A DNA stretch of 64,000 nt from Coniochaeta sp. PMI_546. Lineage: Eukaryota; Ascomycota; Sordariomycetes; Coniochaetales; Coniochaetaceae. Positions within the stretch are counted from its first letter, which is position 1; each line of letters begins with the position of its first letter. Location of the stretch: the NCBI GenBank assembly GCA_021432605.1, contig MU271143.1:2861277-2925276 (forward strand), given 5' to 3'. This document shows positions 11,474-62,100 of this stretch, piece after piece. The notes beneath the pieces are model-generated. The model saw only the letters and a program-made list of their open reading frames with translations. It made no database searches and was not told the origin of the DNA. The position numbers were made by a program, and so were the translations under genes.

Positions 11474-13492
11474 ATGGCGCCCATGACGTATCGTGGCCTT
11501 CTCTTGAGCAGCATCCTCGCTTTCGCAGCCGGAACCACTGCTGCTGACTGGCCCCAGAATGTCGACGTCGACTCGTTTGTCGGCACTGAGAGGGGCATAG
11601 CTCTCGAAGGAGTGCTCGCCAACATCGGACCCAATGGCAGCATGGTCCCTGGTGCTGCCGCCGGTCTGGTGGTCGCCAGTCCATCCAAGGTCAACCCGGA
11701 CTGTTAGTCTACCATTGCTGCATATTGCCGTAGCGATTAGACTTTATAGACTCCTAGCATCGCTGACACCCTCACAACAGACTTTTACACTTGGACAAGA
11801 GACTCGGCCTTGACTCTCAAGATGATCGTCGACGAGTTCCTCTTTGGCAAGACCGAACTCAAGCCGTGGATCGAGGACTACATCACCGCCCAGGCCGTCC
11901 TGCAGACAGTCAAGAACCCCTCAGGCTCGCTGCTGCCGTCAGGTCTTGGCTTGGGAGAGCCAAAGTACAACGTCGACGGGACCAAGTTCAACGGCAACTG
12001 GGGTCGTCCGCAGAGAGACGGTCCGGCACTGAGATCCATTGCTATCATCACCTATAGCAACTATCTCATCGCTCAGGGAGAGTCTGAGAGGGTGAAGGAA
12101 GTCATCTGGCCCGTCATCTCCAACGACCTGTCATACACCGGGCAGTACTGGTACGTCCAACGTAGCATAGCTTTATTTTTGCTCCTTGATGCTCTGCTAA
12201 CCTCTGCACTAAGGAACTCGACCGGCTTCGATCTCTGGGAGGAAGTCTCCGGGTCCAGCTTCTTCACCACCCAGAACCAGTACCGAGCTCTGGTCGAGGG
12301 CGCCAAGCTCGCCGCCGCCCTAGGCGTCACCTGCACCGGCTGCGATCAGGCCCCGAACGTCCTCTGCTTCCTCCAAACATACTGGAACGGCCAGTACATC
12401 ACGGCCAACATCAACGTCAACAATGGTCGCACCGGCATCGACGCCAACACCATGCTCGGCGCCCTCTCGGCCTTCGACGTCAACGCCCCCTGCGACAGCC
12501 CGACCTTCCAGCCCTGCCACAGCCAGTCCCTCGCCAGCTTCAAGGTCTTCGTCGACACCTTCCGCAACCCGGACCTCTACCCCATCAACGCCGGCATCCC
12601 TTCGTCTCAAGGAGTCGCTCTCGGACGCTACGCAGAAGACATCTACTACAACGGCAACCCGTGGTACCTCATCACGCTCGGCGCCGCCGAGTTCCTCTAC
12701 GACGCCGTCGCGCAGTGGTCAGCGCAGAAATCCATCACGGTCGACACCACATCCCTCCCTTTCTTCCAGGGCCTCTACCCGAACGCCACGGCGACAATCT
12801 ACAAGCAATGCAAGAAATCCGACCCCTTCCGCAAAATTCTCACCGCCGCGACGGCCTACGCCGATTCCTTCGTGGCCGTCGCACAAAAGTACACGCCATC
12901 CAACGGCACCCTCTCGGAACAATTCCTCAAGACACCCCCCGGCACCCCCCTCTCCGCCAACGCCCTGACCTGGTCCTTCGCCTCCTTCGTGACCATGGCC
13001 GAGCGTCGCGCAGCCCAGTACCCGCCGAGCTGGGTCCCCTCCCCGCTCCCGCAGCCCCCCTCGTCCTCGTGCCAGCCGGGCTCAACTAAAGGCGTCTACG
13101 CCCCCGCCACCGCCGCCGGCGCCCCCAACGTCACCGTCGGCTGCACCAGCACCGTCCTCTTCGAGGTCAACGCCACCACCTACTACGGCGAGAACATCTA
13201 CCTGCTCGGCAACTCCTCCGACCTAGGCGCCTGGAACGTCGCCGACGCCCTGCCCCTGCTGGCGAGCAACTACACCTCGGAGCGGCCCCTCTGGTACCTC
13301 GCCGCCCCGCTGCCGGCCGGCGAGACGGTGAGCTACGTCTACGTGCGGCAGGAGAACTGCGGCCAGCCCTGGATATACGAGAGCGTGAACCGGACCCTCA
13401 CCGTGCCGGCCTGCGTCGAGGGGGATGAGAGCGTCAGGGAGAGCACGGATGATGCCTGGACTGGGGCGACGGGGAGCAGTGGTGGGTGTTAG
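11474..13492 (+). CDS. gla1: Secreted glucoamylase, GH15 with C-terminal CBM20
   Basis: Extracellular enzyme that releases glucose from the non-reducing ends of starch (glucan 1,4-alpha-glucosidase). Exons 11474-11702, 11781-12150 and 12214-13492 give 625 residues. Introns are 78 nt (GTTAGT) and 63 nt (GTACGT); the second restores the family sequence QYWNSTGFDLWEEV. A signal peptide covers about residues 1-23 (hydrophobic LLLSSILAFAAGTTA). The GH15 domain follows: YTWTRDS near 79, the likely general acid Glu209 in DLWEEV, and the likely general base Glu435 in LSEQF, matching the Aspergillus enzyme. A short Pro/Ser linker (about 472-487) leads to a CBM20 starch-binding domain (about 505-600) with GNSSDLGAW. 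Several N-X-S/T sites suggest glycosylation. The downstream neighbour is a convergent Zn2Cys6 regulator; a regulatory link is not shown. Codons are strongly GC3-biased, as expected for a highly expressed gene. Confidence 0.95.
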
Positions 13493-14255: not shown

Positions 14256-17096
14256 TTATGTTCCAGGACCACCGGGAGGATGACCCGTAGGAGGTACAGG
14301 CCACCCACCGCCCACACCTCCGTAACCGCCGCCGAAATTGTTGAACTGCAGCATGTAGTGACTCCAGTCCATCTGCCCAAAGTCGCCATCCGCCATCGGC
14401 CCACCCCCGCCTAAGAACGGGTTGACGCCGTCGAAGCCGCCAAACATCATGTTGTTGTCGTTCAACGACATGCCCCCTCCTCCTCCTCCGCCACCACCCA
14501 TAGCTTCTGTTCCCATCGGAGCCTCCTGCATCGGCTTACCACCTACATAGCCGGCCGAGGCCGACGTCATGCCCACAGTCGGACTGGCGCTAGACGTCGA
14601 CACCGGCCCTCCGACGGGTTGCTGTCCATACCCTGGCTGTCCTCCATTCGCACCGACACCCATAGCGCCCTGCCCACCATCCCTCAACCCAGCTCCCGCA
14701 TTCCCGCCTCTTTTGGGGTTCAGCCTCGCCATATGCTGCCTCAGCATAACCACCAGCTTGGGCGGCTGCAGCTGGTTCCCCATCGCCGCCTCGGCCGCCT
14801 CGCGCGCGTCCCAGGCCTTGACAAACATGTTTCCAAAGGTGATGTGCATCGGACTCCGCAGGTTCCGCATCAGGCCCCTCCTCTCGTGGTTCTCGAGCAT
14901 GATCTCCCACGCCCTCTCCGCCAGATCCCCCGTCTTGCGCGCCCGCAGCTCGGACATGAGGAAGATGTAGGCCGGGAACGGGAAGTGCATGTGCATGTAC
15001 CACGAGAACCCCGTGATGCTGTCGTTGGAGAGTAGGCCGTTGTCGTACTCGATTGTGCGGATGGCCTCCGCGAACAGCGCGTCGCGCTCGGACTGCTCCA
15101 GGGTGTCGGTCGAGATGCCGCGGCACATGAAGTCGATGACGCGCAGTTTGCAGAGCGCCTGGCGCGTCATCATGAGGGTGAAGAAGTGCAACGGGATCTT
15201 GGGGTCGCACTGCTTGAGGTAGATGGACTCGATGTAGTTGCAGTAACCATCGAGGTCTTGGGGTAGGTTCACGTTGGCCACGTGCGTGACGAGATCGGGC
15301 GATGACGGAGAGGGGCTGTAGTGCACACGCGGCTTGTTGCCCATGGGGGCGCTGGGGCTAGGCCGGATGCCGTTTGGTGCTGCGGCGACAGTCATCTCTA
15401 TCCGGGTCAGGGCGAAGAGCATCTCGGTCGGGCCGTGGTACGGTGCCGGGGGGTCTTTGGCATGTGTGTTCAGATCTGTGTCATTGATGTTGAGCGGGAG
15501 TCTACAGTCCCCTCCGGAAGAGGACAGGGCGGTGATGCTTGACCCGGTGATCTCGGCTATCCGCTTGTCGAACATGACAATCTGCCACCAAAGCCGCCTT
15601 CGCATCTCCGTGTCAAAGGGTGATATGCCGAACTGAGCTCCGTCCCGGTGTAGACCAAGGCGCGTCGCGATCCGCACGGCGATACCGATCAGGCAAAACA
15701 GAGTCCGCGGATCAGTGTACTGCCGGATACCGAGCTGTGACATAGTAAGCTCAGTCACTATGGTCTTTGGAATAAAGATCTAGAGGCTATACCGAAGGTT
15801 GTGCACCCAAGCTGTGATGAATGAGACTTACAAGATATAAGGTGTAGGCTTGGAGCACCATGATTTCGGTCGACCGCATGAATCCCGCGTTTACCAGAGC
15901 CTGTTGCGCTGCCATATGATATTTGGTCAGAAGGACGTTCCTGTCCTCGCCAAACATGCTCTGGACCTCTTCCTCCTTCATCGACGTCACGGCTATGAAG
16001 TAAATACTAAACATTAAAGCCTCGAGAGGTTTCGGTATCTTGGCAGGGTTAGCACCTGCCCCGATGATCTGCCCCTGGAGCGTCGGTACATGGCTGATCT
16101 TTAGTAGCGGGTTCACGTTGCTGATGTAGATCTGCCATAGCTGGAGTATCTGGATCGCCGATGGATGTGAGTTGGTCACGCTTGACTGCGTACCGCCGAC
16201 GGTGAAGGGAAAAGCATCACCGTCCCCAAACATGGCGTCGAAGGCATGGTGGATGGTCGGTCCTTCATAGTCATCGTCCGAAGAGTCAATAACATCGGTA
16301 TGCCGATACTAAGGGGTTCAAGTCAGAGACCGGGTATGTATGGCGCGTCTCGGAGCCGGGGTCTCCGGTGAGGAGGGCAATGATATGCACGGCGTTCCGA
16401 GTCACAGATTCTTTTGAACGAGGAGATACGCTGTGTAATGGTCACACGAGAAAAGCACAGGGATGAAGGGAATATGAAGGAGTGAGGCATCAGGGATATA
16501 TAGAACGAGGAGAAGAGGCGAAGAAGAGGACGTATACGAACCCCATTGAAGTAAGGGAAATACTTGAGACTTCTGCGAAGGGTTAGAGGCGTGAGCAAAA
16601 ACACATAATCAGTCTCATGTGAGACCAAGAAGACGGAGACGACTGACTTTTCATCGCCATCGCCCTGGTTATAGTCTGTCGGGGCGCTAGACTCGGGTGA
16701 GGTCTTCAGGCCGCTGAGGTCTTGGCCCAGGTCGGCGATGTCGTCCGCATTGTCCGAGGCCTTGAAGTCATCGGCGATAGGCTCGAAGTTGACCCCGTGC
16801 TGGGCTAGCAGAGACTCATATTTCTTCAGCCGCTCAATCAGGTCCCGCTCATGCGGCTTCTTCCTCCTCCTCCGCGGGGGCTGCGGAGGCACGACCCTGC
16901 ATTCGACCTGGGCCTTGACGCAGTTGGCACAAGGCTTTTGCTTGTCACAGCGGACCTTGCGTTGCTGGCACAGGACGCAAGAGTGGCCTCTGGTCAGCTT
17001 CATCACCAAATGATCGGGTATCAGACCTTGAGGGACCGCTGGAAGCCTGTCAGTTGACGGAGGCCCAGCAGCAGCTGGATCGGACCCAGGGTCCAT
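14256..17096 (-). CDS. Zn2Cys6 transcription factor with fungal_trans domain
   Basis: Nuclear DNA-binding regulator. Four exons on the minus strand, 17096-16648, 16572-16542, 16308-15832 and 15734-14256, give 811 residues in consistent phase. The zinc cluster is at residues 40-66 (CVLCQQRKVRC...CANCVKAQVEC), followed by a basic linker (PPRRRRKKPHERD) and a short coiled coil (LIERLKKYESLLAQHG), the usual dimerisation element. After an acidic stretch (VIDSSDDD) comes the fungal_trans domain: PSAIQILQLWQIYISNVNPL, LGLHRDGAQFG and MRRRLWWQIVMFDKRIAE. The C-terminus is rich in Gly, Met and Pro (runs of GGGG) and probably disordered. Exon 2 is only 31 nt and its borders are the least certain; the 75-nt intron before it has no in-frame stop. 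The target pathway is unknown; proximity to the glucoamylase gene is suggestive only. Confidence 0.88.
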
Positions 17097-49019: not shown

Positions 49020-51487
49020 ATGCCCGGCGTAGAAAGTACCCCGCAGACTCTTTATGACAAGGTCCTCCAGGCCCATATCGTAGACGAGAAACTCGATGGC
49101 ACAGTCTTGCTCTACATTGATAGACATCTTGTGCATGAGGTCACTTCACCAGTAAGTCACATCCCCAGCGCATTCCCTGGCTCGAGCTCAGCTTACTCAC
49201 AATCTCTGTAGCAAGCCTTCGAGGGTCTAGAGAATGCTGGGCGGAAGGTCCGGAGACCGGACTGCACTCTTGCCACGACCGATCACGTAGGTCAATTCCA
49301 AATCTTGTGCATCTATTCAAATGCCAGGCGGGGCTCAAGCTGACAGATTCGCGCAAAAAGAACGTCCCAACCTCGTCCAGGAAATCCCTAAAAGACATTG
49401 GCAGCTTCATCAAAGAGGACGATTCGAGAACACAATGTGTAACCCTCGAGGAGAATGTCAAGAAGTTTGGTGTCACCTATTTCGGCCTCAGCGACAAGCG
49501 ACAGGGCATCGTCCATGTCATTGGCCCTGAACAAGGATTCACTCTGCCCGGCACCACCGTGGTGTGTGGCGACAGCCACACCTCAACACACGGCGCCTTT
49601 GGTGCCCTTGCTTTCGGCATTGGCACGAGTGAGGTCGAGCATGTCCTGGCCACACAGTGCCTGATCACAAAGAGGAGCAAAAACATGAGGATACAGGTTG
49701 ACGGTGAGCTGGCCCCGGGTGTCAGCTCCAAGGACATCATCTTGCACGTTATCGGCAAGATAGGCACGGCTGGTGGCACCGGAGCTGTCATTGAGTTCTG
49801 CGGCTCAGTCATCCGTAACCTCAGCATGGAAGCACGCATGTCGATCTGCAACATGTCCATCGAAGGTGGAGCGCGCGCCGGTATGGTGGCCCCCGACGAG
49901 ATCACTTTTGAGTACCTCAAAGGCCGGCCATTGGCGCCCAAGTATGGTTCTGAGATGTGGAACCGGGCCGTTGCATATTGGAAGTCCCTGGCATCAGACC
50001 CTGGCGCCAAATACGACGTTGACGTGTTCATCGACGGCAAAGATATCATTCCTACAGTCACGTGGGGAACCAGCCCTGAGGATGTCGTTCCCATCACCGG
50101 AGCAGTCCCTGACCCAGAGACCTTCGCAAGCGAGAGCAAGAAGGCCGCCGGACGTCGCATGCTCGAGTATATGGGCCTTACACCAGGGACCCCTATGCAA
50201 GATATTGAGGTCGACAAGGTCTTCATCGGCTCGTGCACAAACTCGAGAATCGAGGATCTGCGCGCTGCGGCCCACGTCGTCAAGGGTAAGAAGGTAGCAT
50301 CCAACATCAAGCGCGCTATGGTGGTTCCAGGTTCTGGACTGGTCAAGCAACAGGCCGAAGAGGAGGGACTGGACAAGATCTTCATCGAGGCCGGCTTCGA
50401 GTGGCGCGAGGCTGGTTGCAGCATGTGTCTCGGCATGAACCCGGATATCCTGTCGCCCAAGGAGCGTTGCGCCAGCACCAGCAATCGGAACTTTGAGGGC
50501 CGCCAGGGTGCCCAGGGCAGGACACATCTGATGTCGCCAGTCATGGCTGCCGCCGCCGCCATTGTCGGCAAGCTCGCAGACGTCCGCACGATCGCGGAGT
50601 ACAAGGCCAGCCCACATGTCGAGGCAGCAATCGTCCCGACACCAGCAAAAGCTCGTGTTGATGAGAGGATTGAGGAAGATGACCACGAGAAGGAGGCCTT
50701 GACCGATCAGCCCGAAGACATCTCCCCCCATGTTAACATCCACACTCCCGGACACGGCGGCCCTGCTGGACTTCCGAAATTCACCGTCCTCAGAGGCATC
50801 GCGGCGCCAATGGAGAAGGCAAACATCGACACTGACGCCATTATCCCCAAGCAGTTCCTGAAGACCATCAAGCGCACTGGTCTCGGAAGCGCTCTCTTCT
50901 ACGAAATGCGGTTCAACGCCGACGGCACCGAGAACCCCGACTTCGTCCTCAACAAGGAGCCCTACCGCCGGTCCAAGATTATTGTCTGCACAGGCGAGAA
51001 TTTTGGCTGCGGCAGCTCGCGCGAGCACGCCCCTTGGGCTCTTAACGACTTCGGCGTGAAGAGCGTGATTGCTCCGTCGTTCGCCGACATCTTCTTCAAC
51101 AACTCGTTCAAGAACGGTATGCTACCCATCGCTATCAGCAACAAGTCCGACCTCGAGGCCATCCACGCCGAGGCGCAAGCAGGGCGTGAGATCGAGATCG
51201 ACCTGCCTGACCAGGAGATCAAGACGGCGGATGGCAAGACAATCTGCAAGTTTGAGGTCGAAGAGTTCCGCAAGCACTGCCTGATCAACGGCCTGGACGA
51301 CATCGGGCTGACGATGCAGATGGAGGACAAGATTGCCGAGTTTGAGCAGAAGATGTCGAGGGAGACGCCGTGGCTCGACGGCAGCGGATACCTCAAGAGG
51401 AACAAGAGCGGCAAGTTGGCCGTCAAGGCTGTTCCTGTGCCGACGACGAATCGTGGCGAGGAGAAGAAGGAGCCGCTCGAGTGGTAA
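49020..51487 (+). CDS. LEU1: 3-isopropylmalate dehydratase (fused large and small domains)
   Basis: Isomerises 2-isopropylmalate to 3-isopropylmalate, the second specific step of leucine synthesis, using a [4Fe-4S] cluster. Exons 49020-49151, 49212-49286 and 49361-51487 (introns 60 and 74 nt) give 777 residues, close to yeast Leu1 (779). The N-terminal exons encode [31 protein letters not shown] and [15 protein letters not shown], which are lost without splicing. The aconitase-type large domain has [10 protein letters not shown] (138-147) and cluster cysteines Cys361 ([11 protein letters not shown]), Cys422 and Cys425 ([10 protein letters not shown]). After a linker of about 70 residues rich in Glu/Asp and His comes the small swivel domain ([35 protein letters not shown]). 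Bacteria carry these as separate LeuC and LeuD; the fusion is typical of fungi. Confidence 0.97.
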
Positions 51488-55952: not shown

Positions 55953-58059
55953 ATGGGTGTGTCGAGTCCAGCACCCTCATCACGGACATCTAGTCCCGTT
56001 GCTGTCGGTAGTCCGACGGAGAGCCAAGCCGGCAAACGGAAGAGGGCAAGCAAGCCGAAAGTTCGTACCGGATGCATCACATGGTGAGTAAGGACCCAAG
56101 AACTCTATCTGCAACATGCAGCACATTCCCGGGCCAACAACCCGTATACGGTATATGCTAACGTCTGTGCGTGATTAGCAAGTGAGTCTTTGGTCTTTCT
56201 ATCCTTCGTCACCATTCACCTCTCTGCGTTCATGAGATGCTGTCTATGCCAGAAACTAGTCACTAACCTGGTTCCGCCAACACAGAATCCGCAGAGTGAA
56301 ATGTGGAGAGGAGAAGCCGGCATGTGTGCGGTGCACCTCGACAGGACGCACTTGCGATGGCTACGACAAGGGAGTCCCGCCTCGAAACCGGACGCTCGAG
56401 TTCCAGCGCAGCGCCGAGACGGCCAAGATAGAATTCATCAAAGCCTATCAGTGGAATGAGGCCCTCCGGTCCATGCGTCCTATCGCAGCCGACATCGACG
56501 GCACCGAGTCAGAGAAGAAATTCTTCCGCCGGTTTCGTCTCCTGGCCACAGACGGCCTGACAAACCACGTCTGCCACTTCACCACCTTTTGGAGCCGCGT
56601 GACTCCTCAGATAAGTCACCAGGACGAGGCCGTCAAGCATGCCGTCATCGCTCTCGGGGCTGCCTATCAGATATTTCAGCTTTCTCCTCATGAACAAAAA
56701 TACGAGAAGAAGCATGACAAGGCCCTCCACACTGGATCTTCCGACGAGTTCACGCACGAGAACCTTGAGGTGTTCACAATCCAACAGTACAACAAGTCAA
56801 TCTCGAAGCTGCAGCGACATGTTGGATCCTCGTCACCGGAAAGTATCCAGGTCACACTCATATGTTGTCTCGCTTTCATCTGCCTCGAGACCTTGCGTGG
56901 CCATCATGAGGCCGCCGTTACGCACTTGATCAACGGCCTCAACATCCTGCAGTCGCTGCCGCCAAGAGAATTTGACTTCCTAGCCGACTTGAGTGGCAGC
57001 GACAACCAAGGGAGACCGCGAGCACAGCCTTATTCGGCTCAGTGCGACATGCGAGACATCATCGACCTCTTCGGCCGACTAGAGATAAGTGCGTGCTTCT
57101 TCGCCTCGGGCTTGAGACCCATAGTCGCCGAGCGCGGGTACGCTCATCGGAGATTAGACGATGGCACTTGCTCGAAATACCCCAGCGAGTTCTATTCTCC
57201 GCGTCAAGCTCACAGGGCGTATACCTACTTTCTCCGAGATGTACTTGCTCGGCTGTACGAGACCAGCCAAGAACCACCGACGTCGCCTTTCTGGTCCGAC
57301 CCAGCGCAGCAGCGGCAGCAGGAATGCCTCCGGCTGCGCGCAGCGAGACTAGACGTGCTCGTTCAGCAGTTCCTCACCGGTCCCTACGCACCACAGCCGG
57401 ACTCGGACGAACACTACTGCATATACCTTGACCTACTGCACTTCCGGGCGGCACAGATCCTCCTCGCCGGAATGGACGAACGCCTAACCGGACACGGCTA
57501 CGGCTGTGCCCTAGGATTCAGATCTCACTACAACTACCCATCCTCCCCTTCAGGCTCGAGCTCGTCATCTTCATACTCCGGCGGGGCGACGCCACCGCCA
57601 TTTTCCACATCCCCCTTCCCTCCTGACCACGCCACAATCAACAGACCACAACCCGACTCACGAGCTCTACAATCCGACCTCCTCAACGTTGCGTCGCTTC
57701 TCAACGCCTCCCAGACGGCACAAGGCCTGCGTGCGACCTCGAAACACCGCATATTCTTCAACGACGCCGGCACCGTCGGGCCTGTATACCTTGTTGCCAT
57801 CACCGCCACGGACCCAACGATTCGCTCGCGAGCCTTCCGACTATTGGCGGAGACGGGCGGGCTCGGCGTGGGCGACTGCTCGGGCTTTTTTTGGGACGGA
57901 CCGGGGCTACGACAACGTCTGGGGCTGATGGTAGACCCCCTCTTGGGCGCACCTGCTTGGCATACGGGTATGGGAGATATGGGTATGAATAGCATGGGTG
58001 CCGCGCCACTCGTGCAGGATGCGTTGGAACGCTTGGAGTCTCTACGGGTTGAGATGTGA
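55953..58059 (+). CDS. Zn2Cys6 transcription factor with 3-nt exon
   Basis: Nuclear regulator of the fungal zinc-cluster class, 635 residues. Exon 1 is 55953-56083, exon 2 is the three bases CAA at 56179-56181, exon 3 is 56286-58059. Introns are 95 nt (GTGAGT; branch GCTAAC; TTAG) and 104 nt (GTGAGT; branch ACTAAC; ACAG). Joining exon 1 directly to exon 3 makes a TGA stop inside the zinc cluster; adding CAA yields TGC AAA and the perfect cluster CITCKIRRVKC...CVRCTSTGRTC with cysteines 41, 44, 51, 58, 61 and 68. Basic residues (KRKRASKPK) precede it. Downstream are helical blocks typical of the fungal-specific factor domain (FTTFWSRVTPQISHQDEAVK; HAVIALGAAY; VTLICCLAFICLETLRGHHE), a Ser-rich loop and a C-terminal region with GPVYLVAITATDP. 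The target is unknown. Confidence 0.9.
56179..56181 (+). other. 3-nt microexon of the Zn2Cys6 gene
   Basis: The bases CAA are flanked by an acceptor (GATTAG) and a donor (GTGAGT). They complete Cys44 and supply the first two bases of Lys45 of the zinc cluster. Both flanking introns have CTAAC branch points at normal distances from their acceptors. Confidence 0.82.
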
Positions 58060-59108: not shown

Positions 59109-62100
59109 TCAGAACCCAACCAAAACCATAGCCCCCCTGAGGACAGCCCTCGCCAGGCCAGCAACCAGCAGCATCCCCTTGATGCCCCAGACAGCCGCCA
59201 GAAAAGCAACCAACACAAACACCAGCGCAAGTAGATACACGGCACAGTCATGCCACGTCGACCGCCCGGCCGAAAACCTCTTGCTGATAGGCGACCCGGC
59301 GTCGAAGACGGGCGCGATCAAGTTCCAGTACGCTGACATAATCTTGATCAGCGTGTCGGAAAGTCCTGACGACTTGTATCTCAGCGCGGTTGCCGCCCCA
59401 ACACGAGGACCCTTGAGCGCAATCCTTGTCGCCCTAGTAACCTTGTCAGTCCTTGTCTTTCCGGAAGGACCGTCGGTGTCTGCGCTGTCGTCTGGGAGTG
59501 CCTCCCCGCTGCCCCTGCCCTTCTGATCTCGGAGCCCATCCGGGCCCCACGCCGCCGCAGTCGGTGTAGTCGGTGTCCCCGTCACATTCCCCTTGACGCT
59601 CCCCTTCCGCGGGGGGACGTGCACGATCCGTGCTGTCGCGGCGTTGTACTGCGTCCCCACTAGAGCCGTGCGGGCGGCTTCCGTTGCCGGCTCGCGGATC
59701 GGGAGGTGCTTCCGGGACTGGCTCTGGTCGTTGTGGTTCTGGTGTCCGTCGAGTGCTGGCTGGGCAATCGGCTGCCCCGACCTGGGGCTCGTGTTGCCGC
59801 TGCTGCTCGGGGAGCGGGACGGCATGTACCGGTACTTCGGCACTGACGCCTGGCACGTAGACGTGGACGTGGGTGATGCAGTGGTGACGGCATGCTTGTA
59901 GGGCATCAAGTTCGTGACTCCGGCATTCCGGGACGGTGCCGTGGCCGGGATTTCCTTGATGCCATGCCCGTTGTTGCATCTCTCTGCTGGTATTGGAACT
60001 ACGTCTCCGGTCATTGCCGCTTCTCTGTCTGGACCCTTGGGATGGAGGCGAGATATGCGCCGATATAGCCTCTCGCACCGCTCCCGTGTGGCCACCAGCT
60101 GGGATGCCGATGTGGTAGGTATGACGGGCCCTGGCTCCTGTGTGTATATGGGGGCTGTATTCTGGGGGATCCACAGACTTGATCCGTTGCGACATCCCTT
60201 CGTCGGCAAGTGCTTGTGGGACGATATAATACCGTTGGCTAGTCCTGGCTCTGCTTTGTAGTGAACCGTCTCTGTCTTCGGCTCCGATGGGCGCCATTGG
60301 TGCCGATACTCCGTCACCATCGGTATCCTGTGTTGCCGCTCCCGGGGAGCGGAGATGTCGAGACTCGGCCAAACGCTCGGTGGCAGCCGGGGTGGGGAAG
60401 CCAGCAGATCGAAATCGGGCTGTGTCGGCTGCTGGAATGAACTTGAGGATGTCCAGGGCTTCTGTGCTGGCTGGTCCGTCGCCGTCTCCCGCTCTAGTTT
60501 GACTTCGGCGTCGATGAGTTGGGTCGTCGATACCTGAGAATCTCGACTCTCTTTGGAGCTGGCTTTCTCGCGAGCCTTCTCGAGCTGAAGCTTTGTAGCG
60601 GCTTCCATTGCCGATATCCGAGTCAATCGATCGTCTTTGGATACGCTGCTTTCCGCAGGTCCATCGAAGTGCGGCCTCCTGTGCAGTCCGCGAGTGTGCA
60701 TCAGCAGACGCGGATCGTAGCCAGTAATGGTGGTGGTGGGTATGTAGGCAGACTTTGGTAGCGCCTGGGTCCTTGAATCCTCGGCTGGAGACTCTTGCCT
60801 TGTCTCTTGCCTTGTCTCTACCGCTCCCGTGGGGTGTGCGATCTTTGTTTCGTGTTCTGCGGTGGGAGGCAGGTTCTTCGTATCCTGTCCGAAGCCTGCG
60901 ATATCCTCTAGTAACTGCTTGGCCCAACCTGATGTCTGAGGGTCCTTCGTCTTCGGTGAAATCTCTGTATCGGTGAGGTTGACGGGCGTGTCTTGGATCT
61001 GTGAGCTCGACAACAGTCGCGTATCTTCCTGCTTTGGGCCCAACGGGAGCGGTATCGACGGTCCCCGGTATACGTGTATGGTCCCGGGCTGTGACTGGGG
61101 TGTGGTCGCTGTAGCTGCGCTTATCACGCCTCGGCCTTGGTCGATGCTGGGTATTTTTCTCGGTGAGCTGTTTGGGCTCGACGGGTAATTCACGAACCAC
61201 ACCTTCCGGTTCCTCTCGCCCGCGAGACTGCATATGGCTGCGTCGGGCGGCGAGCCGATCGGCGTCTCGTCCACGTTCACAGGACCGGCAAAACGGCGGT
61301 TCTCCTCCTGCCCTATCTCCGCTGGAAGTGGCGGGCTCGCGATTGCTCTGTCTCCGGTGTAGTGGTAGCTGGCCTCTATCGTCTCGATCCTTGCCCCTAA
61401 AAAAGAATCCTGGTGGATTGAAGGGCCGGGATTGGAAGTGTTTTCCACGTTGCCTGGTATGGTGATCTTCAGCGAGGGTGGCTTCTGTTTGTCCTTTGGT
61501 GGCGGGACAGGTTTTCGATATATCCTACGGTTGCTGGCTGATAAGCCAGGAGCTGCCACCTCTACAGCCGGACCGGGCTCTGAAGCTCTTCTAATAGCCT
61601 GAGGAAGCGTACGGTTGATCCCATTTCCGAGAATGTCAGTGATCACGGAGTGTCTGCGATCGCCCTCAGGATGGGGGGTGTGTATAATGGTGTCGGAAGA
61701 CTCCTGTGCGACGATGTCTGGGCGAGTCTGAGGAGTGCTAAGCCCCGTCTGGAGACCAGTGGGTATCGATATGGATCGTTGTTCTTCCCAGCGAAGGACC
61801 TTTGGTATGGCCGGAGGTGGTATAATTGCTCCGTCAGATGCTAATGCTTGTCAGGCGAAGTGAAAGGGAGCCCGGATAAGACGATGCCACTCACTCGAAC
61901 GTGAAGTCCTGCTCCTTGCTGATGCATCGGCGATGGGACTCAGATCAGGTTCGGCCACGGAAGACCACTGATTCCTGTCTTTGCGCCATCTCACCCGGTG
62001 CTGGAATGAACGGATTGACTCCTTGTTCCGCTGAACCTTGTCCAGTCTCTCTTGCTCCTTCCGCAGCCGGCCAAGACTGGCTTCCTCTGCATCACGAGTT

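What the first reader, a model, noticed from the sequence alone, without database searches (positions are those of the whole stretch)
55953..56330. A 3-nt exon completes the zinc cluster of a Zn2Cys6 regulator
Exon 1 ends ACATG|GTGAGT inside the codon for the second cluster cysteine, and the last exon begins AATCCGCAGA. Joined directly they give TGA. Between them, TTAG|CAA|GTGAGT has perfect signals on both sides of three bases, and both introns have CTAAC branch points. Including CAA gives the canonical CITCKIRRVKC. The cluster thus depends on recognition of one of the smallest possible exons; skipping would truncate the factor at about residue 43, a potential on/off switch.
Basis: partly seen in the sequence, partly recalled or inferred. 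Interest (0 to 1): 0.78.

Follow-up and report, generated by a model that had tools for sequence, protein, structure and literature searches.

The report
Three-base exon completing a zinc cluster
A fungal gene regulator can build its DNA-binding zinc cluster only if the cell splices in an exon just three bases long, and protein models of related genes in many fungi carry marks of the same tiny exon being missed by gene-finding software.

Summary
In a Coniochaeta genome a Zn2Cys6 regulator is split ACATG|GTGAGT..ATTAG|CAA|GTGAGT..CACAG|AATCC. No single GT/GC-AG intron restores the cluster (0 of 90 open solutions). Two of 6,728 open two-intron solutions do; only CAA has consensus signals. The deposited protein BR93DRAFT_90890 is letter-identical to the CAA model. 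Skipping gives TGA after 43 residues.

New here is indirect evidence of conservation, read from protein models. Nineteen orthologues are annotated CITWIR-type, exactly what skipping CAA yields if exon 3 starts with G; ten carry ..SKIRRVKC, the acceptor AG plus CAA. All lie in one clade; the W forms span five Sordariomycete orders. Only 26 of 89 NCBI models have an intact cluster, against 56 of 66 for relatives of a paralogue with one intron at the intron-2 position. Intron 2 is thus probably the older, intron 1 a later gain 3 nt upstream.

A regulated switch is not supported, nor excluded: two short introns with full signals should include CAA constitutively. Precedents: the 20-nt Xlr2 microexon and the 1-nt CYP621A exon. 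No RNA reads and no DNA of other species were examined.

The parts
55953..56083 (+). Exon 1: ATG to ACATG, ending inside the codon of the second cluster cysteine (TG^C)
   Evidence: P0001 letter-identical
56084..56178 (+). Intron 1, 95 nt, donor GTGAGT, CTAAC branch point, acceptor ATTAG; the extra intron of this gene
   Evidence: no intron at this position in the own-genome paralogues L011, L013, L020, L023
56179..56181 (+). 3-nt microexon CAA: completes TGC and supplies the first two bases of the Lys codon
   Evidence: deposited protein identical
56182..56285 (+). Intron 2, 104 nt, donor GTGAGT, CTAAC branch point, acceptor CACAG; at TGC AA^A, the older position
   Evidence: same position in L011, L013, L020, L023
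56286..58059 (+). Exon 3: rest of the zinc cluster and the protein up to the stop
   Evidence: PF00172 over its cut-off and PF11951 just under it (20.3 against 21 bits) in the joined protein

Best explanation
This is a real 3-nt internal exon, most likely included constitutively, in a Zn2Cys6 regulator. Shown: the sequence, the single solution with consensus signals, the identical deposited protein, and the intron-2 position shared with four paralogues. Inferred: each intron is recognised on its own (intron definition) and they are removed one after the other; removing either leaves normal sites for the other, so CAA needs no special machinery. Inferred origin: an old intron at TGC AA^R was joined by a second intron 3 nt upstream (TG^C) in an ancestor of several Sordariomycete orders, which left CAA between them. 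Because gene finders rarely model so short an exon, most of the deposited orthologues examined have a damaged cluster on paper, probably not in the cell.
For: Unique consensus solution; signal found once in the window; deposited protein identical. 19 of 293 proteins fetched in all searches read C[IL]TWIR[RK], the skip join when exon 3 starts with G; none of the 118 first fetched by the paralogue control search does. 10 proteins have SK directly before IRRVKC (AG + CAA + G). P0003, 80% identical, reads through both introns with codons that fit ..CAG-CAA-GTGAGT.. and CTAAC in both introns, and starts with the same MVSKDP as the window's read-through. All W and SK rows of the tree lie in one clade of 86; close relatives at 79-93% identity differ in annotated form. 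Intact cluster in 26 of 89 NCBI models against 56 of 66 for the paralogue's relatives. Intron definition in filamentous ascomycetes (PMC6616335, passages).
Against: No RNA read and no DNA of another species was seen; conservation rests on codon-level inference from protein models. 4 of 18 models listed lack the Arg before IRR that the model predicts for read-through (P0037, P0118, P0068, P0109). Three of the 13 SK-class rows do not show plain SK before IRR (P0045, P0083, P0102). P0017, an unbroken ORF with CLTCK on a 2,377-nt contig, could be a transcript or an intronless gene. Nearest-group control is weaker: 19 of 27 intact. The Fisher values ignore relatedness.
Confidence: 0.86

Rival explanations
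1. A regulated microexon switch: including CAA makes a DNA-binding factor; skipping makes a 43-residue stub here, or a full-length protein with a dead cluster (Cys-Lys to Trp) in species whose exon 3 starts with G.
For: Skipping ends in TGA here. A switch-like 20-nt microexon in the Zn2Cys6 cluster of Xlr2 is reported (PMC11121469, abstract and passages). The W-type models are full length and in frame.
Against: Consensus signals on both introns; intron definition favours two short introns (PMC6616335); the skip product is not conserved; W and intact models alternate between close relatives, as annotation error would.
Confidence: 0.09
2. Another junction restores the cluster: a non-canonical GT..CA intron (56084-56282, CITCR) or a TGA exon (acceptor GCAAG, donor GTCTTT, CITCE).
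For: Both restore a cluster with an open frame.
Against: Poor or non-canonical signals; the deposited protein has Lys, which neither gives.
Confidence: 0.03
3. A stwintron (one intron nested in a splice site of another), not two introns with an exon between.
For: Two splicing reactions within 202 nt; stwintrons are described in Sordariomycete fungi (PMC9024468, listing and start of abstract only).
Against: A stwintron leaves no exon, so it acts as one contiguous deletion; the only one that restores the cluster ends in CA. After intron 1 comes CAAGTGAGT, not the rest of a split donor.
Confidence: 0.01
4. Sequencing error or a decaying gene.
For: None seen.
Against: Open frame to the stop; P0002, from a second Coniochaeta genome, has the same CITCKIRRVKC at 82% identity overall.
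Confidence: 0.01

Closest known systems
Xlr2 microexon of Trichoderma virens (PMC11121469; abstract and passages read)
   Same: Microexon inside a fungal Zn2Cys6 cluster, missed by annotation, conserved in related species
   Different: 20 nt and encodes PCRRCE; inclusion reported to depend on glucose; conservation reported within Trichoderma; a different gene
1-nt exon of Fusarium CYP621A (PMC12940212; parts 1 and 2 of 3 read)
   Same: Ultra-short fungal exon in a conserved motif, missed by gene models, inferred from orthologues
   Different: One nucleotide, a P450 gene, Fusarium only, supported by RNA reads; the authors propose base loss and rescue by a cryptic exon, whereas here the paralogues suggest gain of a second intron
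1-nt exon of plant APC11 and conserved plant microexons (PMC4674806, PMC8831610; passages read)
   Same: Ultra-short, conserved, widely misannotated exon
   Different: Plants; verified by RNA; other genes
3-bp micro-exon of Drosophila homothorax (PMC7392893; search listing only)
   Same: Exon of three bases in a transcription-factor gene
   Different: Alternatively spliced; an animal homeodomain gene
Stwintrons of filamentous fungi (PMC6616335, passages; PMC9024468, listing)
   Same: Two consecutive splicing reactions at one place
   Different: Nested introns that leave no exon between them

Membership tests
Zn2Cys6 (Zn_clus, PF00172) regulator | Six cysteines in CX2CX6C..CX2CX6C spacing, PF00172 over its cut-off | tested here: met
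   Joined protein 30.2 bits against cut-off 21; only with CAA or the two poor alternatives
Zn2Cys6 (Zn_clus, PF00172) regulator | Fungal-specific transcription factor domain (common, not obligatory) | tested here: inconclusive
   PF11951 at 20.3 bits, cut-off 21
Microexon (very short internal exon) | Internal exon flanked by two introns with canonical signals | tested here: met
   and the enumerations
Microexon (very short internal exon) | Present in mature RNA | not testable with these tools
   No RNA reads; indirect: deposited protein identical
Switch-like microexon (as Xlr2) | Inclusion changes with condition | not testable with these tools
   No RNA data
Stwintron | Internal intron splits a splice element of an external intron and leaves no exon | tested here: not met
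   Only contiguous deletion that restores the cluster ends in CA
Conserved microexon | Same exon with flanking signals in orthologous DNA | tested here: inconclusive
   No DNA of relatives found; protein-model signatures agree

The most novel reading that the evidence does not exclude
A 3-nt exon kept across several Sordariomycete orders because its inclusion is regulated: where exon 3 starts with G, skipping makes a full-length protein with a dead zinc cluster (CITW), a built-in dominant-negative form; in Coniochaeta, skipping shuts the gene off through TGA.
Probability: 0.1. Interest if true: 0.8.

Novelty: new member of a known kind. Interest (0 to 1): 0.57.

Why it matters
If right, one of the smallest possible exons has lasted across several fungal orders in the core of a DNA-binding domain, and 63 of the 89 NCBI-sourced models examined lack an intact cluster, so surveys that count Zn2Cys6 factors by domain would miss or misread them. 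It gives a natural test of how a fungal spliceosome handles a 3-nt exon under intron definition, and of how such exons arise: the paralogues keep the older intron, so gain of a second intron 3 nt away can be tested against loss of bases with rescue by a cryptic exon.

Tried and rejected
DNA of relatives: viral contigs (2 pattern matches, no relative) and genome contigs (13 pattern matches, no relative). Stwintron, GT..CA intron and TGA-exon readings were rejected on sequence.

Own-genome survey: 20 further loci with partial cluster matches, out of 147 listed PF00172 matches. With strict signals 9 of 20 get a single intron; with looser ones 19 of 20 get some single-intron solution, several doubtful (L024-L028), and L014 gets none. 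None gives a 3-nt microexon. L011, L013, L020 and L023 have one intron at TGC AA^. L010 is ambiguous: one 240-nt intron or a 4-nt exon GCAA, same protein. L014 shows a weak 10-nt candidate.

Weaknesses of the counts. The class labels are simple regexes: P0126, P0134, P0135, P0154 and P0175 have intact clusters but were filed elsewhere, and P0083 is a read-through ORF filed under SK. The tree used 102 of the 175 proteins then held; the rows outside the clade of 86 came mostly from a search on the cluster itself, so 15 of 16 intact there is a biased control. The paralogue search is the fairer one. The 11 species pairs were picked by eye from the listings. Fisher values (2e-12; 2e-4 for the nearest group) ignore relatedness. 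One search crashed after 5 of 10 sister pairs; the other 5 were done. One search read loci in the wrong orientation and was redone.

Papers: searches aimed at this exon or its kind listed no report of this 3-nt exon in the library held; two searches showed only the first 25 of 735 and 15 of 52 papers. MGG_01779 (P0049, FZC29) stands in a knockout table of PMC4192604 with Normal in five columns and Affected in the sixth (one passage, column heads not seen).

Full report
Observation. The window lies on contig C1 of a 33.5-Mb fungal genome in 24 contigs. C1 has 4,343,278 bases, the contig length given for P0001, hypothetical protein BR93DRAFT_90890 of Coniochaeta sp. PMI_546. The gene runs 55953-58059 on the + strand. 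Exon 1 ends ACATG at 56083; intron 1 is 95 nt (GTGAGT..TGCTAACG..ATTAG); CAA is 56179-56181; intron 2 is 104 nt (GTGAGT..CACTAACC..CACAG); exon 3 starts AATCCGCAGA at 56286. The joined frame is 635 aa with CITCKIRRVKC. Without CAA a TGA follows 43 residues, and retaining either intron also gives a stop.

Alternatives. Of single GT/GC-AG introns, 90 keep the frame open and none gives a cluster. Allowing any ends, one contiguous deletion does so, with GT..CA ends and CITCR. Of two-intron solutions 6,728 are open and two give a cluster: CAA, and TGA with poor signals and CITCE. The deposited protein is letter-identical to the CAA model, which neither alternative gives. YAG-NNN-GTRAGT occurs once in the window on both strands and in 42 of 20,000 shuffles of the interval.

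Relatives. Only protein models of other species could be read. One search listed 120 of 436 hits and (cluster region of a W-type model) 120 of 376; together 175 proteins. Nineteen read C[IL]TWIR[RK]. If exon 3 starts with G, inclusion reads TG-CAA-G = Cys-Lys and skipping reads TG-G = Trp, so these are what skip joins would look like. Ten more have SK directly before IRRVKC, which fits an exon stretched upstream over the acceptor AG and CAA. In 14 of 18 models with read-through or odd joins listed (recount) the residue before IRR is Arg, as AG plus a purine gives; P0037, P0118, P0068 and P0109 are exceptions. P0003 (80% identity over 93% of the query) starts MVSKDP, the six residues the window gives when read from the last ATG of exon 1 into intron 1, and goes on ..YMLTPMRAQ-Q-VSF.. 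and ..SALTSLKR-R-IRRVKC, compatible with CTAAC, CAG-CAA-GTGAGT, CTAAC and AG-R; its introns would be 78 and 107 nt. These are codon-level inferences, not DNA reads.

Tree. On the part after the cluster, 102 of the 175 proteins (quick LG+G4 tree; the tool warned of long branches) put all 19 W rows, all 13 SK-class rows and 25 of 26 other rows in one clade of 86 (SH-aLRT 100) with 29 intact rows. The W label needs 14 changes on the tree (11 forced by starred branches). W rows belong to Sordariales (P. fimiseda, Chaetomidium), Calosphaeriales (Pleurostoma), Microascales (Lomentospora), Glomerellales (Colletotrichum) and Xylariales (Hypoxylon, Monosporascus and, by recalled kinship, their allies), looked up for one species per genus named; Coniochaeta is Coniochaetales. 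These orders lie in three subclasses. Close relatives differ in annotated form: P0085/P0088 90%, P0014/P0022 87%, P0012/P0018 93%, P0075/P0076 87%, P0049/P0068 86%. That fits annotation error better than protein evolution. P0017, an unbroken ORF on a 2,377-nt contig with CLTCKIRRVKC, is the sister of the W-type Pleurostoma model at 61% identity: perhaps a spliced transcript, perhaps an intronless gene.

Control. The paralogue L013 has one intron at exactly the intron-2 position, and the deposited P0176 is 100% identical to my spliced model (120 of 226 hits listed). Among NCBI-sourced listed models an intact cluster stands in 26 of 89 for our gene and in 56 of 66 for the paralogue's relatives (19 of 27 for the nearest ones). 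In 11 species pairs found by eye, 5 have only the paralogue intact, 0 only ours, 4 both and 2 neither. None of the 118 proteins first fetched by the control search has the W form.

Origin. Four own-genome paralogues (L011, L013, L020, L023) share the intron at TGC AA^ and show none at TG^C. Intron 2 is therefore probably the older one and intron 1 a later gain 3 nt upstream (inference). The composite 202 nt would be long for one fungal intron; introns over 160 nt are called rare in A. nidulans (PMC6616335, passages). Nelson and Syed propose another route for their 1-nt exon, base loss and rescue by a cryptic exon (PMC12940212); that is not excluded here. L010 may be a second case (4-nt exon) or a single 240-nt intron.

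Mechanism. In filamentous ascomycetes splice sites pair across short introns (PMC6616335, passages). Each intron here has its own full set of signals, and removing either leaves normal sites for the other. Constitutive inclusion in two steps is the simplest account (inference). A 3-nt exon can hardly be bound from both sides at once, so the steps are probably sequential (inference). Regulated skipping, as reported for the 20-nt Xlr2 microexon (PMC11121469, abstract and passages), stays possible but has no support here.

Novelty. Ultra-short exons are known: 1 nt in Fusarium CYP621A with RNA support (PMC12940212), 1 nt in plant APC11 (PMC4674806, passages), 3 nt in Drosophila homothorax (PMC7392893, listing). 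A microexon in a Zn2Cys6 cluster is known (Xlr2). This is a new member of a known kind, notable for its three bases, its place in the cluster, and a signature spread over several orders.

Noticed in passing
L010 (G000:C2:2663166-2663958): Another Zn2Cys6 gene whose cluster can be joined by one 240-nt intron (donor GTACGA) or by two introns around a 4-nt exon GCAA with GTAAGT donors; both give the same protein.
   Followed up: partly
window 16872-16985 (-): A second Zn2Cys6 cluster match in the window, uninterrupted.
   Followed up: no
window 11810-13492 (+): ORF with glycoside hydrolase family 15 and a CBM20 starch-binding domain.
   Followed up: no
window 49307-51487 (+): ORF with aconitase and aconitase C-terminal domains.
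   Followed up: no
window 59109-61646 (-): 845-aa open frame next to the regulator with no Pfam match.
   Followed up: no
P0009 (Coniochaeta ligniaria) and P0026 (Madurella mycetomatis): Deposited models that drop parts of the cluster by other odd joins at the same place.
   Followed up: partly
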